Origin: Nesterenkonia halophila | GTDB lineage: Bacteria; Actinomycetota; Actinomycetes; Actinomycetales; Micrococcaceae | Length of the DNA: 64,000 nt | Reading direction: 5' to 3' | Assembly (NCBI RefSeq): GCF_009467795.1 | Contig: NZ_WIAX01000013.1 | Coordinates: forward strand, 186,001-250,000 | Part shown: piece by piece, positions 20,461-26,528 of the stretch | How the letters are laid out: every line of letters starts with the position of its first letter | How positions within the stretch are numbered: the stretch's first letter is position 1 | Translations under genes and position numbers: made by a program | The notes under the pieces: generated by a model | Database searches by the model: none | What the model was told of the DNA's origin: nothing | Seen by the model: only the letters and a program-made list of their open reading frames with translations

Positions 20461-20495
20461 GGCGCCCCTTCCCGCTGGGGTGCTTCCGCCGGGGA

Positions 20496-20551
20496 TGACT
20501 CCGTGGGACAGGTGGGAATGCGCACTCATTCCCACCTGTCCCACGGAGTCA
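20496..20551. terminator. Perfect 25-bp inverted repeat, bidirectional terminator
   Basis: Arms 20496-20520 and 20527-20551 are exact reverse complements with a six-base loop. It lies between the convergent universal stress and rhamnogalacturonan lyase genes. Related hairpins occur at 22991-23046 and 25530-25585, each just downstream of another minus-strand gene. Confidence 0.8.
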
Positions 20552-20570
20552 ACGCCCGGGGAGCCGGAGC

Positions 20571-22859
20571 TCAGTCGTCGGCGGGCACTGTCACCGTGAC
20601 CGCCTCGGAGGCCGTCTCGCCGGCGTCGTTGCTCGCGACCACCTGGACCTCGTGCTGACCGGGGCCGACGTCGTCGGCCTCCAGCTTCACATCCTGATCC
20701 CTCGGCGTGCGGTCCTCGACCTGCGCCGTCGCCCGTTCCTCGCCGTCGACGATGAGCGCGAACCGTGTGCCGTTGACCTCGCCCTCGGCGATGGTCGCCT
20801 CCACCCGCAGCTTGCCGACTTCGGCGTCCTCGACGTCGACCGTCACCGGCCCCGGCGCGCCGTCGGCGGCGTCGGGGACATCCTCGAACTCCGGCGCCTC
20901 GGCGGTGTAGTCCAGCCGCGGCGCCGGCGGCTGTTCCATGCCTTCGCCGAGGAAGTAGGAAGTGTGCGGCGGCTGGTTGTAGGCGGTGTTCTGCCAGGCG
21001 ATCGACAGCCGGTACTGCGAGTCGGACATCGGCGTGCGCAGCCGGTGCTCAGTGGGGATCACCGTGGTGGCGATGCGCAGCGCCGTCGAGTCCTCGGTGC
21101 GAGTGACGATCTCCTCGCGCCAGTCGCCCAGCAGGTCGGCCTGTACTGCGACATTGCCCTTGGTGCCGTTGTTGCTCAGCGTGCCTTCGGCCCGGTAGAG
21201 CTCCTCCTCCGTCTCCTCCTCGTAGTTCCACGTCGAGATGGTCGGCACGCCCGTGCCGGACTCGGCGTCGTAGTCGTGGTCGGTGATCTCGCGCAGCAGA
21301 TCGCCGTCCCACCAGGTGAGGAAGTTCGCCGCGGGGATGGTCTCGGAGATGAGCTCGCCGGAGGCGGACTTCAGCTGACCCGTCCGTGAGTCCCAGGAGG
21401 CGTCGCCGCCGACGGCCCAGCCCTCGGCGCCGGGGTGGCGCGGGTCGATGTCGCCCATGGCCGCCCGGCCGGTGTCGGTCTCGCCGGGAATGTCCCAGAG
21501 GATCTCTCCGGTGGCGGCGTCGCGCAGCGTCGCACCGCGCCCGCCGGAGGCGCCGATGTCCTCGTGGGCGGAGAAGACCTCCTGGCCGGGGCGCGATGGG
21601 TCGAAGTCGGAGACGTGCTGGGCGTCGCCGTGGCCGAGGCCGGTGTTGTACAGCGCGGAGCCGTCGTCGTCGAGGGTCATCGAGCCGTAGACGATCTCGT
21701 CCTTCCCGTCGCCGTCGACGTCGTTGACCGAGAGGCTGTGGTTGCCCTGGCCTTCATACTCGTCGCCGGCTTCGTCACTGTCGAAGACCCAGCGCGAGCT
21801 CAGTTCCTCGCCGTCGAAGTCCACCGCCCAGATCACCGCGCGGGTGTAGTAGCCGCGGGCGAAGACGGCGCTCGGCGACTGCCCGTCCAGATACGCGGTG
21901 CCGGCGAGGAACCGGTCGGAGCGGTTGCCGTAGTCATCGCCCCAGTTCTCGAGATCGCCGCGCGGAGGCACATAGTCGACCGTGTCGACGGCCGCACCGG
22001 TCTCGCCGTCGAAGACGGTCAGGTACTCAGGCCCCTCGAGGACGCGTCCCTCGGAGTTGCGATGGTCGGCCTCGGGGTCGCCGATCGCCCCTCCGGTGCC
22101 GTCGACCGTGCCGTCGGCCGTCTTGGCCATGACCTCGGAGCGCCCGTCGCCGTCATAGTCGAAGACCTGGAACTGCGTGTAGTGCGCTCCGGCACGGATG
22201 TTCTTCCCCAGGTCGATGCGCCAGAGCTGCGTGCCGTCCATCTCATAGGCGTCGAGCATGACGCTGCCGGTATATCCGCTGTGCGCGTTGTCCTTGGCGT
22301 TGGTGGGATACCACTTGACGATGAACTCGTACTCGCCGTCACCGTCGACGTCGCCGATGGAGGTGTCGTTGGCGGTGTAGCTGTAGTCCACGCCGTCCGG
22401 CGTCGTGCCGCCCTCGGGCTTCTGCAGCGGGATGTCGCGCGTCTGGCCGCCCCAGGTACTGAACTCCTCGGTGGCCCAGCGCTCGACGCCGTCGACGACG
22501 GTGCTCACCCGGTAGGTCGCCCCGGCCGCGCCGTCGGGGTCCTGGAGGCTGGTCGCCTCGGTGAGCGGCTCCTCGGTGATCCGCTCGCCGTCGCGGTAGA
22601 CGTGGAAGGCCAGGTCCTGCGGATCGTCGCCGAGCAGCCGCCAGCCGACATGCACGCCGTCGCCGGTCGCGGCGGCGACGGGGGCGCGGTCGATGCGCTC
22701 CGCCTGGCGGGCGAGCGCGGAATCCTGCGACGATGCGCCGTCGGACCCGCCGGACGGCTCCGGCGCCGCGGCGGCTCCCCCGGCGGCGCCGAGGAGCAGA
22801 CTGCCGGCCGCCGCGGCCGAGACGCCGGCCGACAGCGGTGATCTGAAACGATTCACCAT
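20571..22859 (-). CDS. Secreted rhamnogalacturonan lyase, PL11 family
   Basis: A 762-residue exoenzyme with an N-terminal signal peptide (MVNRFRSPL, then an Ala/Gly-rich hydrophobic stretch to about residue 35). The catalytic region resembles YesW/YesX-type lyases: an eight-bladed-propeller-like fold with calcium-loop repeats (DVDGDGEYEF, DYDGDGRSEV, DVDGDGKDEI) and the conserved NTAYNQPPHTSYFLG near the end. An Ig-like domain occupies about residues 670-760. It should cleave the rhamnose-galacturonate backbone of rhamnogalacturonan I by beta-elimination outside the cell. The start shares MVNRFR(S/T)PL(S/T)AG with the acetylesterase next door, and the two upstream regions are duplicated. Confidence 0.92.
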   Translation of the reverse strand: MVNRFRSPLSAGVSAAAAGSLLLGAAGGAAAAPEPSGGSDGASSQDSALARQAERIDRAPVAAATGDGVHVGWRLLGDDPQDLAFHVYRDGERITEEPLTEATSLQDPDGAAGATYRVSTVVDGVERWATEEFSTWGGQTRDIPLQKPEGGTTPDGVDYSYTANDTSIGDVDGDGEYEFIVKWYPTNAKDNAHSGYTGSVMLDAYEMDGTQLWRIDLGKNIRAGAHYTQFQVFDYDGDGRSEVMAKTADGTVDGTGGAIGDPEADHRNSEGRVLEGPEYLTVFDGETGAAVDTVDYVPPRGDLENWGDDYGNRSDRFLAGTAYLDGQSPSAVFARGYYTRAVIWAVDFDGEELSSRWVFDSDEAGDEYEGQGNHSLSVNDVDGDGKDEIVYGSMTLDDDGSALYNTGLGHGDAQHVSDFDPSRPGQEVFSAHEDIGASGGRGATLRDAATGEILWDIPGETDTGRAAMGDIDPRHPGAEGWAVGGDASWDSRTGQLKSASGELISETIPAANFLTWWDGDLLREITDHDYDAESGTGVPTISTWNYEEETEEELYRAEGTLSNNGTKGNVAVQADLLGDWREEIVTRTEDSTALRIATTVIPTEHRLRTPMSDSQYRLSIAWQNTAYNQPPHTSYFLGEGMEQPPAPRLDYTAEAPEFEDVPDAADGAPGPVTVDVEDAEVGKLRVEATIAEGEVNGTRFALIVDGEERATAQVEDRTPRDQDVKLEADDVGPGQHEVQVVASNDAGETASEAVTVTVPADD

Positions 22860-22870
22860 TGATCGTTCCT
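22856..22870 (+). promoter_or_regulatory. Candidate operator overlapping the lyase start codon (site F)
   Basis: CCATTGATCGTTCCT overlaps the start codon and ribosome-binding site of the lyase gene. It matches the regulator-proximal site CTATTGATCGTTCTG at 12 of 15 positions. The acetylesterase gene has no equivalent here. Confidence 0.3.
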
Positions 22871-22895
22871 CTCCGAATATCGAGAACAGATACGA

Positions 22896-22917
22896 GGGGT
22901 CGCCGACTGACGACCCC
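22896..22917 (-). promoter_or_regulatory. Conserved 5'-leader hairpin of the lyase transcript
   Basis: GGGGTCG and CGACCCC flank the loop CCGACTGA. The same loop occurs at 25434-25457 with stem TGGGTCG/CGACCCA, that is, with a compensating base-pair change. This suggests a selected RNA structure. Confidence 0.5.
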
Positions 22918-22923
22918 TGGAGA

Positions 22924-22955
22924 ACGTAAGGCACATCACATGTAACGATCAATAG
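22924..22955 (-). promoter_or_regulatory. Promoter region with operator (site B)
   Basis: On the minus strand CTATTGATCGTTACA (22955-22941) supplies a -35-like TTGATC. Seventeen bases on lies TTACGT, a weak -10. The same arrangement and spacing recur at 25463-25494. Overlap of the TGATCG motif with the -35 suggests repression. Confidence 0.4.
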
Positions 22956-22990
22956 CCTGAGCATGCCGTCTGAGCATCGCCACCTCAGGA

Positions 22991-23046
22991 TGACTCCGCG
23001 GCACGTGTGGGAATGTTCGCGCTTTCCCGCACCTTCCACGGCGTCA
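22991..23046 (-). terminator. Hairpin terminator of the acetylesterase gene (degenerate family member)
   Basis: Arms beginning TGACTCCG and ending GGCGTCA pair imperfectly over about 24 bases. The element is about 50 bases downstream of the acetylesterase stop and is the most diverged of the three related hairpins. Confidence 0.55.
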
Positions 23047-23096
23047 TCGCCCCGGAATCATAGCCCCGAGGTCATCCACCCGGGAGGCCTCGAGAC

Positions 23097-25397
23097 TCAG
23101 TCCAGCCGAGTGATCTCCACCCCGTTGAGCCAGCCCTCGGCCTCGATCGTCAGCTGGCCGTCGTCGACCTCGACCGGTCGCAGCACGCGGCTGCTGGTGG
23201 CGCCACGGCCGGCGTTGGCTGCGCCGAAGTCCTCGCCCTCCACCGCGACGTCGAGCCGGGCGGTGCCGAGCATGTCGCCCCAGATCACCCGGACCGCGTA
23301 GGTCCCGTCGGGGACGTCGACGGCGAATGGCGTCTCCGCACTCGGCAGCAGGAAGTCCCGCGCCAGATCAGACGGCGCCGGGGCGAAGTCCGCGCCGCGG
23401 TCCCGGCCGTCGGGTTCGCCGGCCAGGAAGCCGTAGCCGCGCTCGACCGTGTAGGCCGTGGTCTCTTCGACCGGCGCGAAGCCATCCATCGTCGACCCGC
23501 CGGAGAGCTGGAAGTCGAAGGAGTGCCGCGGCGCGCGCGTGGCGACGGTCAGCGGCTCCGAAGTCTCCGAGGCGCCGCGGGCGTTCACCGCGACCACGCG
23601 CAGATCGTAGGAGGCGTCCTGCTCCAGACCGGAGACCTCCGCGCGCTGCTCCGTGGAGGTGGTGGCCAGCGACCAGGCACCCTCGCCGGCCGAGGAGGGC
23701 TTCACCTGCACCCGGTGGGCGTCGGCGGCGTCGCCGGAGGCCCAGTGCAGCGTCAACCCGGAGGCCGTGACACCCTCGGCCCGCAGATCGCTCGGGGCCG
23801 CGGGCACCTCGGCCGGGGCCTCGACGTCGACGACGTGCTCGGCCAGCGGGACGTCCAGGGCCGCCGTGTCCTCGGCGACCAGCCGCGCCATCTGGATCGC
23901 GCCGTACTCCTGGAAGTGGGTGTCGTCCTGCGTGCCGTCGGGGCGGTTCGGGTACACCCCAGACGGGACCCAGAGGAAGACGGACTTCGCCCCCTCGGGG
24001 CCGATCTGGTCCAGATAGGCGCGGCTGGAGGCCGCGAGGTCCACCAGCGGAGTGCCGGTCTCCTCGGCCAGCGCGGTCGCCTGCTCGACGTATTCGGGGA
24101 AGGAGACGTTGAACGCGCCGGTGGCGGGATCGAAGTCCCGTCGCGAGACGGGGGTGACCAGGATCGGCGTGGCCCCGCGCTGCCGGGCGCCCTCCACATA
24201 GGTCCGCAGGTAGTTGCGATAGTCGGCCGGAGCGGCGTACCGGTCGTCGACGCCGTAGGTGTTGTCGTTATGCCCGAACTGCACGTAGAGCGTGTCCCCG
24301 GGGCGGATCTGGCGCAGCACGCTGTCCAGCCGCCCCTGGCTGATGAAGTTCTTCGACGAGCGCCCGCCGATGGCGTGGTTGTCGACGACGACGCCGTCGT
24401 CGAGGAATCGGCCGAACATCTGTCCCCAGCCGGCCTGGGGCGCGTACGCCTCGGCGTAGGTCTGCACGGTGGAGTCGCCGGTGAGGTAGGCCGTCGGCGT
24501 CTCCGCGGCCTCGCGCTCGTCGTGGGCGGTGATCGTCACCGCCGAGATCGTCGCCGCCTCGCCGGAGAACTCCAGGTTCAGCTGGCCGTCCACCAGCGCG
24601 GCGTCGAAGGCCAGCTCCCGCGTCTCGCCGGCGGCGAGCCGGGTCGGCTCGACCTTCTGCACCTGCTCGGCGGTGATCGCCAGATCCGCGGGCGCCTCCG
24701 GGTCACCGGCCGCGACGGTGACGGTGTAGTCGCCGACGGGGAGGTCGGCGACCAGCTCGGTCTCTCCGACGGTGACCAGATCCCCGCTCAGCGGATCCTG
24801 CCCTCGATGGAGAGGAGTCACCTCCTCGAGGTCGACGAAGCCGACGCGGCTCTGGGCGGTGTAGGGCGATCCGGGACGCAGCGCGACCGCGCCCTCGGCC
24901 GCCCGACCCGGCCCGAGGTCCAGGGTCAGACTGCCGTCCTCCGGGAAAGTCGGCTCCGGCACCGAGTCGCCGGCCAGCCGGCCGACGGCAGCCGCCGAGG
25001 GCTCCGAGAGCCCTTCGGCGCCGACGGCTCGCACCCTGTAGTAGTGCACCGCCGTGGTATCGACGTCGTCGTCGGTCGCGAAGACCTCGCGGGCTCCGGT
25101 GCGCGCGACCTCGACATAGTCGCCGTCGGCGCTGTCGGCGCGCAGCAGCACATAGCCCTGCGCGCCGGAGACCTCGTCCCACCGGATGTCCAGACTCCCG
25201 GGCTCGGCATGGGCGACCCGCACCGACTCCGGTGCGGCGACGACGCCCTCGGCCTGGGCGACGGTCTCGGCGTCAGCTCCGGCGTCGCCGGCATGCGTCG
25301 GGCCGGCGGCCGTTCCCCCGGCGGAGCCCAGGATGAGGCCGACTGCCGTGAGCACCGAGGCCCCAGCGGTCAGCGGCGTTCTGAAACGATTCACCAT
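23097..25397 (-). CDS. Secreted rhamnogalacturonan acetylesterase (CE12-type SGNH) with fibronectin III domains
   Basis: A 766-residue exoenzyme. A signal peptide (MVNRFRTPLTAG to about residue 35) is followed by a fibronectin type III domain (about 45-135) and a linker domain. The SGNH hydrolase core spans about 305-520: YLTGDSTVQ (Ser block), AIGGRSSKNF (Gly), FGHNDNTYG (Asn) and DDTHFQEYG (Asp-x-x-His). A second fibronectin III domain (about 540-630) and a C-terminal beta domain follow. It should remove acetyl groups from rhamnogalacturonan so that the lyase can act. AGGAGG lies ten bases before the ATG. Secretion signal, leader DNA and terminator are shared in design with the lyase gene. 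Confidence 0.9.
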   Translation of the reverse strand: MVNRFRTPLTAGASVLTAVGLILGSAGGTAAGPTHAGDAGADAETVAQAEGVVAAPESVRVAHAEPGSLDIRWDEVSGAQGYVLLRADSADGDYVEVARTGAREVFATDDDVDTTAVHYYRVRAVGAEGLSEPSAAAVGRLAGDSVPEPTFPEDGSLTLDLGPGRAAEGAVALRPGSPYTAQSRVGFVDLEEVTPLHRGQDPLSGDLVTVGETELVADLPVGDYTVTVAAGDPEAPADLAITAEQVQKVEPTRLAAGETRELAFDAALVDGQLNLEFSGEAATISAVTITAHDEREAAETPTAYLTGDSTVQTYAEAYAPQAGWGQMFGRFLDDGVVVDNHAIGGRSSKNFISQGRLDSVLRQIRPGDTLYVQFGHNDNTYGVDDRYAAPADYRNYLRTYVEGARQRGATPILVTPVSRRDFDPATGAFNVSFPEYVEQATALAEETGTPLVDLAASSRAYLDQIGPEGAKSVFLWVPSGVYPNRPDGTQDDTHFQEYGAIQMARLVAEDTAALDVPLAEHVVDVEAPAEVPAAPSDLRAEGVTASGLTLHWASGDAADAHRVQVKPSSAGEGAWSLATTSTEQRAEVSGLEQDASYDLRVVAVNARGASETSEPLTVATRAPRHSFDFQLSGGSTMDGFAPVEETTAYTVERGYGFLAGEPDGRDRGADFAPAPSDLARDFLLPSAETPFAVDVPDGTYAVRVIWGDMLGTARLDVAVEGEDFGAANAGRGATSSRVLRPVEVDDGQLTIEAEGWLNGVEITRLD

Positions 25398-25433
25398 CGA
25401 CTGATCCCCTCCTGATGTCATGGACGATCATGG

Positions 25434-25457
25434 ATGGGTCGCCGACTGACGACCCAT
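25434..25457 (-). promoter_or_regulatory. Conserved 5'-leader hairpin of the acetylesterase transcript
   Basis: ATGGGTCG and CGACCCAT form an eight-base stem around loop CCGACTGA, identical in loop and different by a compensated pair from 22896-22917. Confidence 0.5.
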
Positions 25458-25462
25458 GGAGA

Positions 25463-25494
25463 ACGTAAGGTGGATCACATGTAGCGATCAACAG
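25463..25494 (-). promoter_or_regulatory. Promoter region with operator (site C)
   Basis: Minus-strand CTGTTGATCGCTACA (25494-25480) contains TTGATC, 17 bases before TTACGT, exactly as in 22924-22955. Confidence 0.4.
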
Positions 25495-25529
25495 CTCGAT
25501 CATGCCGTCTGAGCATCGCCACCTGAGAA

Positions 25530-25585
25530 TGACTCCGTGGGATGCGTGGGAATGCTCACGCTTTCCCACGCGTCCCACGGAGCCA
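25530..25585 (-). terminator. Long hairpin terminator downstream of the epimerase gene
   Basis: About 24 bases in each arm pair with only an end mismatch, one A/G and one G-T position. It lies 50 bases downstream of the epimerase stop and is a clear relative of the perfect repeat at 20496-20551. Confidence 0.7.
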
Positions 25586-25634
25586 TCCTGAGGGGAGCCA
25601 TCGCCCGAGAGCCATCGTCCGGGCACCGCCTCGG

Positions 25635-26528
25635 TCAGTGCGACAGCTCAGTGCGCCAGGAGCGCTTCGGCTCCCAGCCGAGCACGCGACGGGCCTTCTC
25701 GATGGAGAACGCCGTCGCGTCGCCGGTGAGGCCTCCGGCCAGATGCGCCAGCTCCGGGAAAAGCTCCGGGATCAGCTCGGCCAGCGGCCGGCGAGCCAGC
25801 GCATCGGCGGCGCCGACGAAGAACACCGAGCCGTTCTCCACCGCGTCGCTGTGCTCCAGGGCGGCGAGCAGGAAGTCGGTGACGTCGCGGGCGTCGACGT
25901 AGTTGAACAGCGCCACCGCCGACAGCGCCGGGTCGTCCAGCCGCTCGCGGACGGTGTGGCCCTGCTGCGTGGGCGCCCCCTCCCATTCCTCGGGGGCGAT
26001 CACGTAGCACGGGCGGAAGCTCATGAACTTCACCGCGTCGGTCTGCTGGGCGAACATCGCCGCGACCTGCTCGGCGACGTGCTTGCTCAGCCCGTAGGCG
26101 TGCCACGGCTGCGGGGGCACCTCCTCGTCCAGCGGCAGCCGCGGCGGGACCCAGCCGGCCGGCGAGCCGTAGCCCATGATCGACGGGCTCGAGGCGATGA
26201 CCACTGTCGTCGCGCCGGAGCCGACCGCCGCGGCGGTGACGTTCTGCGCGATCGCCGCGTTGGTCGTCAGGATCACGTCCTCCGGCGCGGCGAAGGGCAC
26301 TGCGATCGCCGCCAGCGAGATCACCGCCGTCGGGGAGATCTCGGCGAAGAGCGCGGCGGTCGCCTCGGCGTCGAGCAGGTCGGCGGCCCGGTGGTCCACG
26401 CCGTCGACCGGCTGCTCGGGCAGGTCGCGGTCGACGCTGATGATCTCGTGCTCGGTGGCGGCGAAGCCGGCGACGACGCTGCGCCCCAGCCGTCCGGAGC
26501 CTCCGGTGATGATGATGCGTTCAGCCAA
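25635..26528 (-). CDS. NAD-dependent epimerase/dehydrogenase, possibly uronate dehydrogenase-like
   Basis: A 297-residue extended short-chain dehydrogenase: GGSGRLG nucleotide loop, AIAVPFAAPED, SSPSIMGYGSP and the catalytic Tyr-x-x-x-Lys in HAYGLSKHVAEQ. It starts with TTG, six bases after a perfect AGGAGG. Overall length and the S-S-x-x-x-x-G-Y segment recall uronate dehydrogenases, which oxidise galacturonate to a lactone, but general UDP-sugar-type epimerases share these features. Beside pectin genes and an enolase-superfamily enzyme, a role in galacturonate oxidation is an attractive inference. It lies 77 bases after a Gfo/Idh gene in the same direction. Confidence 0.75.
   Translation of the reverse strand: MAERIIITGGSGRLGRSVVAGFAATEHEIISVDRDLPEQPVDGVDHRAADLLDAEATAALFAEISPTAVISLAAIAVPFAAPEDVILTTNAAIAQNVTAAAVGSGATTVVIASSPSIMGYGSPAGWVPPRLPLDEEVPPQPWHAYGLSKHVAEQVAAMFAQQTDAVKFMSFRPCYVIAPEEWEGAPTQQGHTVRERLDDPALSAVALFNYVDARDVTDFLLAALEHSDAVENGSVFFVGAADALARRPLAELIPELFPELAHLAGGLTGDATAFSIEKARRVLGWEPKRSWRTELSH

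What the first reader, a model, noticed from the sequence alone, without database searches (positions are those of the whole stretch)
22860..25634. Two intergenic modules of exactly 237 bp, duplicated in design, around the lyase and acetylesterase genes
Regions 22860-23096 and 25398-25634 are both 237 bp long and align over much of their length. Each contains, in order along transcription, a hairpin terminator, a TTGATC/TTACGT promoter-like pair and a GTCGCCGACTGACGAC leader hairpin. The proteins that follow share MVNRFR(S/T)PL(S/T)AG signal starts. A whole terminator-promoter-leader-signal cassette seems to have been duplicated and placed before two non-homologous secreted enzymes.
Basis: seen in the sequence. 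Interest (0 to 1): 0.75.

Follow-up and report, generated by a model that had tools for sequence, protein, structure and literature searches.

The report
Split enzyme gene with copied front
In a Nesterenkonia bacterium, a large secreted pectin-degrading enzyme that most relatives examined make as one chain is made from two genes, and both halves carry the same copied control region, export signal and probable repressor site; this explains the repeated module and is a testable case of a gene being divided in two.

Summary
The two modules are real and homologous: without their hairpin they score 87 in local alignment, against at most 13.5 for 1966 random window stretches. The equal 237-bp length is coincidence: in the sister genome (Nesterenkonia sp. 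F) the same intergenes are 240 and 225 bp.

What it is: in 53 of 56 other genomes examined the esterase and lyase are ONE polypeptide, and the Nesterenkonia pair falls inside that fused clade. Its genes break at the domain boundary, and the lyase carries a copy of the esterase's promoter block, leader hairpin and signal peptide. Best reading: gene fission, probably by tandem duplication and complementary loss.

The shared MVNRFR start is encoded by TGAATCGTTTCA, a LacI-type palindrome: 6 sites in this genome and 34 in 58 genomes (own included), against 0 and 1 for the reversed pattern, often next to L-rhamnose genes. Three of three g41 fused genes have it over their likely start (MNRF). Probably the RhaR operator.

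The 'terminator' is one copy of a separate dispersed 60-nt palindrome family (about 32 places here, about 63 in the sister), abundant only in these two of 395 genomes. No further cassette copies were found.

The parts
20494..20553 (.). 60-nt palindrome, copy 3, 3' of the lyase gene and between convergent genes
   Evidence: RNA fold -52.7 kcal/mol on +
20571..22859 (-). PL11 rhamnogalacturonan lyase gene, 762 aa
   Evidence: PF21348 1.6e-236, PF18370 5.7e-28
22740..22859 (-). lyase codons 1-40 (signal-peptide region), homologous to esterase codons 1-40
22844..22855 (.). LacI-type palindrome TGAATCGTTTCA over lyase codons 2-6
22895..22918 (-). leader hairpin of the lyase mRNA
22918..22952 (-). 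promoter-like block TTGATCG..CTCCA of the lyase, conserved in all four modules aligned
   Evidence: promoter function inferred
22989..23048 (.). 60-nt palindrome, copy 2, 3' of the esterase gene
23097..25397 (-). GDSL esterase gene (YxiM / rhamnogalacturonan-acetylesterase-like, with fn3 and a galactose-binding domain), 766 aa
25278..25397 (-). esterase codons 1-40 (signal-peptide region)
25382..25393 (.). LacI-type palindrome TGAATCGTTTCA over esterase codons 2-6
25434..25457 (-). leader hairpin of the esterase mRNA
25457..25491 (-). promoter-like block of the esterase
   Evidence: promoter function inferred
25528..25587 (.). 60-nt palindrome, copy 1, 3' of the epimerase-like gene
25635..26528 (-). 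upstream gene, NAD-dependent epimerase/dehydratase family
   Evidence: PF01370 1.3e-26

Best explanation
The module pair is what a gene fission left behind. The ancestor carried one secreted bifunctional enzyme: signal peptide, GDSL acetylesterase, a linker, PL11 rhamnogalacturonan lyase, with a repressor operator over its start codon. In the lineage of the window and Nesterenkonia sp. F the gene became two: the 5' part (palindrome, promoter block, leader hairpin, ribosome site, operator/start, signal peptide) now stands both before the esterase and before the lyase, so each half can be transcribed and exported separately. The most economical route is tandem duplication of the whole gene with its upstream region, then loss of the lyase half from copy 1 and of the esterase half from copy 2 (inferred). 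Proposed working: without rhamnose a LacI-family repressor (RhaR) sits on TGAATCGTTTCA, 62-63 nt downstream of the promoter-like block, and blocks initiation or acts as a roadblock; rhamnose or rhamnogalacturonan fragments release it and both enzymes are made and secreted together. Because the operator lies inside the reading frame it also dictates the first residues (M)VNRF. Shown: sequence homology, fused relatives, nested trees, a non-random motif in rhamnose-gene neighbourhoods. Inferred: promoter, repressor identity, repression, duplication-loss route.
For: Homology of the modules from palindrome to about codon 40. Esterase in 37 of 395 family genomes, in the window's own genus only in G000 and G021. 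Esterase and lyase in one stop-free frame in 53 of 56 other genomes examined (28 in L129-L156, 23 in L166-L188, G557, G402); Pfam shows both in single 1755- and 1679-aa proteins. The esterase ends GWLNGVEITRLD-stop where the fused chain reads GWLNGLEITPLM, and the lyase resumes ARQAERIDRAPVA where it reads QRQAERIDRSPVA. FastTree trees, midpoint-rooted, put the Nesterenkonia pair in one clade with genera g41, g14 and g115: local support 0.986 (esterase), 0.965 (lyase; this clade also holds G459), 1.0 (concatenated). Signal peptides of the halves match each other (111) and the g41 fused enzyme (59-80) better than three other signal peptides of this genome (28-53). Three of three g41 fused genes start, as far as the frame shows, ATGAATCGTTTCA = MNRF. 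Motif: 6 vs 0 reversed control here, 34 vs 1 in 58 genomes, beside rhaM, L-rhamnose isomerase, LacI, sugar-binding-protein and PL11 genes; within 1 mismatch near the 5' end of 39 of 51 fused genes, 16 exact, against 0 of 51 for the reversed pattern at up to 1 mismatch.
Against: Three distant relatives, all of genus g17, have the two unfused (G569, G648, G699), and G454 has a second, lone esterase. A paper on Paenarthrobacter sp. FR1 names its CE12 and PL11 as two different proteins (PMC12844168, passages); I did not test whether they are orthologues. The esterase tree puts Nesterenkonia next to g41 (0.868), the lyase tree next to g115 (0.894): the halves agree on the clade but not on the sister; no outgroup was used. 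The promoter words are absent from the fused genes of g41 that were searched, so only the operator and signal peptide trace to the fused ancestor. 12 of 51 fused genes show no motif within 1 mismatch. In G021 the esterase site has one mismatch. No promoter passed the sigma-70 scan. The published RhaR motif is a figure not held, so the regulator was not checked against it; and beside a site in G001 stands a different LacI-like protein, 35.5% identical to the one near rhaM here. No expression or binding data.
Confidence: 0.8

Rival explanations
1. Mobile cassette: a terminator-promoter-leader-signal unit is copied around the genome ahead of secreted enzymes.
For: The unit is duplicated and ends with the signal peptide.
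Against: No third copy of the promoter/leader part in the window's genome, 65.5% complete, nor in 30 genus genomes besides the sister's pair; the second PL11 of this genome has a different leader and signal.
Confidence: 0.05
2. Fission by direct insertion of a copy of the 5' cassette into the inter-domain linker, rather than whole-gene duplication followed by complementary loss.
For: The junction lies between domains and what is missing there is the linker.
Against: It needs a copying event with precise ends and an in-frame signal-to-lyase joint in one step; I saw nothing that marks the ends of such an insertion.
Confidence: 0.25
3. Reverse polarity: separate genes are ancestral and the fused form arose in relatives.
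For: Unfused pairs exist in genus g17; trees were midpoint-rooted.
Against: Nesterenkonia nests inside fused sequences, with several successive nodes of support 0.96-1.0 in the concatenated tree, and its duplicated signal peptide resembles that of the fused g41 genes.
Confidence: 0.08
4. TGAATCGTTTCA is conserved only because it encodes the signal-peptide start, not as an operator.
For: In these genes it is coding in both halves and, as far as the frame shows, in g41.
Against: At 30 of 34 sites in 58 genomes the motif lies 19-394 nt upstream of a gene start as called by my own gene caller, 1 site had no called gene and 3 lie in coding starts; many of the genes are rhamnose genes; 1 reversed-control match.
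Confidence: 0.12
5. For the hairpin part: the 60-nt palindrome is a family of transcription terminators or mRNA 3' stabilisers.
For: 21 of 22 copies between tandem genes are nearer the upstream stop than the downstream start (median 26 vs 108.5 nt), 19 are between convergent genes; strong hairpins; covariation, 71 double-changed cells vs 37.1 in shuffles, 0 of 500.
Against: 8 of 52 lie between divergent genes, no T run at the window copies, sequence conservation beyond what a terminator needs; gene calls are from my own simple caller.
Confidence: 0.4

Closest known systems
CE12:CBM35:PL11 fused enzymes (cazy_webscraper paper, PMC10483417; passages read)
   Same: Esterase N-terminal and PL11 lyase C-terminal in one chain; 50 CE12 plus PL11 sequences reported there
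   Different: In the window and Nesterenkonia sp. F the two are separate genes with a duplicated 5' region; the passages read do not discuss fission
Actinomycetales LacI-type RhaR regulon (PMC3870299; passages read)
   Same: LacI-family gene near a rhamnose mutarotase gene, palindromic sites at rhamnose and rhamnogalacturonan genes
   Different: Here the site also lies over the start codon of two secreted enzyme genes; match to the published logo not tested
Repetitive extragenic palindromes, GTAG/CGTC classes (PMC3733652; passages read)
   Same: Dispersed extragenic hairpins, mostly downstream of coding regions
   Different: 60 nt instead of 20-40, no GTAG or CGTC tag seen, no RAYT match in either genome, abundant only in two of 395 genomes
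Roadblock by a regulator bound downstream of the promoter, e.g. Kpn2I C-protein (PMC6237814; search listing and start of abstract only)
   Same: A DNA-binding protein in the way of RNA polymerase stops elongation
   Different: Different protein family; roadblock here is inferred only
Gene fission by duplication and complementary loss (monkey-king type in Drosophila, recalled, from no call)
   Same: Two descendants each keep a different half
   Different: Bacterial secreted enzyme, with promoter block, operator and signal peptide kept in both

Membership tests
LacI-family RhaR operator/regulon | Even palindrome with central CG, LacI type (type recalled) | tested here: met
   TGAAWCGWTTCA
LacI-family RhaR operator/regulon | Sites beside L-rhamnose catabolic genes | tested here: met
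   rhaM PF05336 above cut-off (L049, L080, L055); RhaI_grampos above cut-off (L079, L084), just below it for the cut-off-length call in L085
LacI-family RhaR operator/regulon | LacI gene in the cluster | tested here: met
   PF00356 5.8e-18 in L049; 50.5% and 44.8% identical to LacI proteins next to sites in G042 and G046; 35.5% to the one in G001; extraction for G052 failed
LacI-family RhaR operator/regulon | Match to the published 20-bp motif | tested here: inconclusive
   Motif is in a figure; no letters in the text
LacI-family RhaR operator/regulon | Binding and rhamnose response | not testable with these tools
   needs EMSA, deletion
CE12-PL11 fused enzyme, split | Both halves descend from the same fused clade | tested here: met
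   sister taxon differs between halves
CE12-PL11 fused enzyme, split | Break at a domain boundary | tested here: met
CE12 rhamnogalacturonan acetylesterase | Similarity to solved CE12-type enzymes | tested here: met
   YxiM 2o14 1.8e-35, RG acetylesterase 1deo 1.1e-8; activity not tested
PL11 rhamnogalacturonan lyase | RGL11 domains | tested here: met
REP (GTAG/CGTC) | 20-40 bp with GTAG or CGTC tag at one end | tested here: not met
   60 nt, GATG...CATC
REP (GTAG/CGTC) | RAYT transposase (GTAG class) | tested here: not met
   PF01797: 0 in G000 and G021; 1 of 30 genus genomes, G009; both genomes are incomplete
REP (GTAG/CGTC) | Extragenic, mostly downstream of genes | tested here: met

The most novel reading that the evidence does not exclude
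A combined element, operator plus start codon plus signal-peptide start, is the conserved unit: the repressor binds over the first codons as a roadblock and so fixes the N-terminus of the exported enzyme. When the bifunctional enzyme split, this dual-coded element was doubled, giving two separately exported but co-repressed enzymes. This would be a regulatory site that constrains protein sequence through a gene fission.
Probability: 0.4. Interest if true: 0.6.

Novelty: new variant of a known kind. Interest (0 to 1): 0.5.

Why it matters
Gene fissions are usually seen only as differences in protein domains. Here the regulatory and export parts that each half needed are still visible, the fused form is kept in many relatives and two genomes carry the split, so the steps can be ordered and tested. 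It also shows that identical N-termini on unrelated secreted proteins can reflect a DNA site inside the reading frame. The 60-nt palindrome family is a second, separate find: a repeat abundant in only two of 395 genomes searched.

Tried and rejected
Conserved 22-bp word shared with G004 and G022 as an operator: rejected, those matches lie inside an OsmC-like coding frame (the name OsmC is recalled from the sequence, from no call). Rfam: only microRNA models far below their gathering scores, an effect of the long hairpin. RAYT-driven REP: no PF01797 in either genome. Functional theme of palindrome neighbours: none seen by eye among the genes next to the 20 fetched G000 copies. Further cassette copies: none. 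A lyase tree rooted with the second PL11 was unusable because one outgroup row was badly extracted; I dropped both outgroup rows and rebuilt it with a midpoint root. Attenuation by the leader hairpin: terminator-like only in the lyase copy and within chance. NCBIfam gave no family above its cut-off for lyase, esterase or epimerase. A single G005 match of the module is no palindrome.

Limits: the genome is a 65.5% complete assembly. Gene context of the palindrome and of the operator rests on a simple codon-bias gene caller I wrote; its 3 'inside' cases are probably over-long calls and were left out of the medians. About 32 and about 63 places are half of the both-strand match counts 64 and 126 at E 0.01 (list cut by the tool); 20 and 32 copies were fetched and aligned. 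The family-wide palindrome search used strict filters that scored 13 candidates a genome. 'One frame' for most of the 51 loci rests on the esterase and the first part of the lyase; the whole lyase stretch was seen in the longer loci L157-L165, L192 and L194-L196. Lyase trees used only that first part. Six further family genomes with the esterase (G301, G349, G353, G365, G392, G399) were not examined for fusion. The shuffles keep only base composition. The linker was judged to be fn3-like by eye; Pfam scored two fn3 stretches in L157 and one in L195 without placing the second.
Full report
1. Observation. The two intergenes (22860-23096, 25398-25634) are each 237 bp and align. Segment by segment the lyase and esterase modules are 78% (palindrome), 86% (palindrome to -35), 89% (promoter block), 91% (leader hairpin), 58% (rest of the leader), 80% (codons 1-15) and 66% (codons 16-40) identical, each better than all 500 shuffles; codons 41-100 fall to 59% (2 of 500), and the stretch from the upstream stop to the palindrome is 60% (30 of 500). 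With the palindrome left out the modules score 87 in local alignment, against at most 13.5 for 1966 random stretches of the window. So the homology runs from about the palindrome through the signal peptide. The equal length does not hold in the sister genome: 240 and 225 bp.

2. Where it comes from. A scan of genome contigs with a palindrome pattern hit only contigs of Nesterenkonia sp. F, 32 stretches (that tool may leave out the window's own genome). Their contig lengths are those of genome G021 of the genus search. The window is therefore from a genome of the same genus (G000). G021 carries the same two modules at C3:39196-39355 and C3:41724-41871, in the same gene order. The rest of the leader is 97% identical between the two lyase modules but 58% between the two modules of the window, so the duplication is older than the split of the two genomes.

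3. The palindrome is separate. The hairpin part is a copy of a 60-nt palindrome, consensus GATGACTCCGTGG-nAnGnG-TGGGAA-loop-TTCCCA-CnCnTn-CCACGGAGTCATC. There are 64 both-strand matches in G000 and 126 in G021 at E 0.01, so about 32 and 63 places. Among 395 genomes of the family no other has more than 2 matches at E 0.001, with strict filters; a laxer search gave 2 in G025 and 8 in G005 (best 2.2e-6), which I did not look into. Of 52 aligned copies, 22 lie between tandem genes (21 of them nearer the upstream stop), 19 between convergent and 8 between divergent genes; 3 were called inside genes. The stem covaries: 71 cells changed on both sides against 37.1 in shuffles (0 of 500), 90.1% of cells paired against 87.1%. 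Eleven of 20 G000 copies sit between the same two genes as one of the 32 fetched G021 copies. No RAYT (PF01797) was found in either genome. The two module copies are 78% identical, the family average, so the hairpin alone does not speak for duplication.

4. The operator. The shared start ATGGTGAATCGTTTCA contains TGAATCGTTTCA. In the window the pattern TGAAWCGWTTCA occurs only at these two starts even with one mismatch (0.10 expected). The genome has 6 sites and no reversed-control match: the two starts, and places upstream of a second PL11 gene, of an L-rhamnose mutarotase gene with a LacI gene nearby, and of two sugar-binding-protein genes, one facing a transporter gene that looks like MFS (name recalled). 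In 58 genomes, own included, there are 34 sites in 14 genomes against 1 control match. Of these 34, 3 lie in coding starts (the two here and the G021 lyase), 30 lie 19-394 nt upstream of a called gene start and 1 had no gene called; several of the genes are L-rhamnose mutarotase or isomerase (families tested for a subset). Rodionova et al. (PMC3870299, passages) describe a LacI-type RhaR in Actinomycetales with 20-bp palindromic motifs; the logo is a figure I could not read.

5. The split enzyme. The esterase was sought in 395 family and 396 order genomes and found in 37 and 35 of them. Outside the window's genus I examined 56 genomes with it: in 53 the esterase and the PL11 lyase share one stop-free frame, esterase first; in 3 genomes of genus g17 they do not (G569 same frame with one stop between, G648 fragments, G699 separate frames), and G454 has an extra lone esterase. 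Pfam finds both enzymes in single proteins of 1755 and 1679 aa. The Nesterenkonia esterase ends and the lyase resumes at matching domain edges; a linker of about 180 aa is missing. Midpoint-rooted trees of esterase, lyase and both joined place Nesterenkonia in the clade of g41, g14 and g115 (0.986, 0.965, 1.0), though the nearest sister differs, g41 for the esterase and g115 for the lyase and the joined set. In g41 all three fused genes appear to start with ATGAATCGTTTCA, M-N-R-F, and their signal peptides resemble both Nesterenkonia ones (59-80) more than three other signal peptides of the window's genome do (28-53). The motif within one mismatch lies near the 5' end of 39 of 51 fused genes, 16 exact; the reversed pattern gave 0 of 51 in the same 56,478 bases. 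The fused architecture itself is in print (CE12:CBM35:PL11, PMC10483417, passages). None of seven paper searches (bear on fission) listed a report of this split; they cover open-licence papers only and I judged by listings.

6. Reading. The simplest account is that a fused gene, already carrying the operator over its start, was duplicated in tandem and each copy lost one half. The copy of the 5' region in front of the lyase then needs no special cassette. The promoter words are not seen in the g41 genes, so the age of the promoter block is unknown. How the operator works here (block or roadblock) is inferred from its place 62-63 nt downstream of the promoter-like block; no promoter passed the consensus scan. 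The leader hairpin GGGTCGTC-nnnn-GGCGACCC is kept in all four modules, with G-U pairs in the G021 lyase copy (read by eye), and would stand near the 5' end of the mRNA; a stabilising role is a guess.

7. Verdict. Observation confirmed; 'modular cassette' replaced by gene fission with a copied front end. Interesting and testable, built from known kinds of parts.

Noticed in passing
window 20494-20553, 22989-23048, 25528-25587; about 32 places in G000, about 63 in G021: A 60-nt, strongly palindromic, dispersed repeat family abundant only in these two of 395 genomes, mostly 3' of genes, with no RAYT match; how it spread is unknown.
   Followed up: partly
window 22989-23048 and L027:7725-7784: The loop of the palindrome in the lyase module looks inverted between the window and G021 while the arms stay palindromic, as if the element had flipped in place (by eye).
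   Followed up: no
L047 (G000:C10:123949): A second PL11 lyase in the same genome with a different leader and signal peptide and the motif 71 nt upstream of its start.
   Followed up: partly
L189 (G569), L191 (G648), L193 (G699): One distant genus has esterase and lyase unfused, in one case in the same frame with a single stop between them: a possible independent split or decay.
   Followed up: no
L066 (G001) and L078 (G029): The same motif lies between a LacI-like gene and an MFS-like transporter gene (names recalled); the G001 LacI is only 35.5% identical to the one near rhaM here, so a second regulator may share the site.
   Followed up: no
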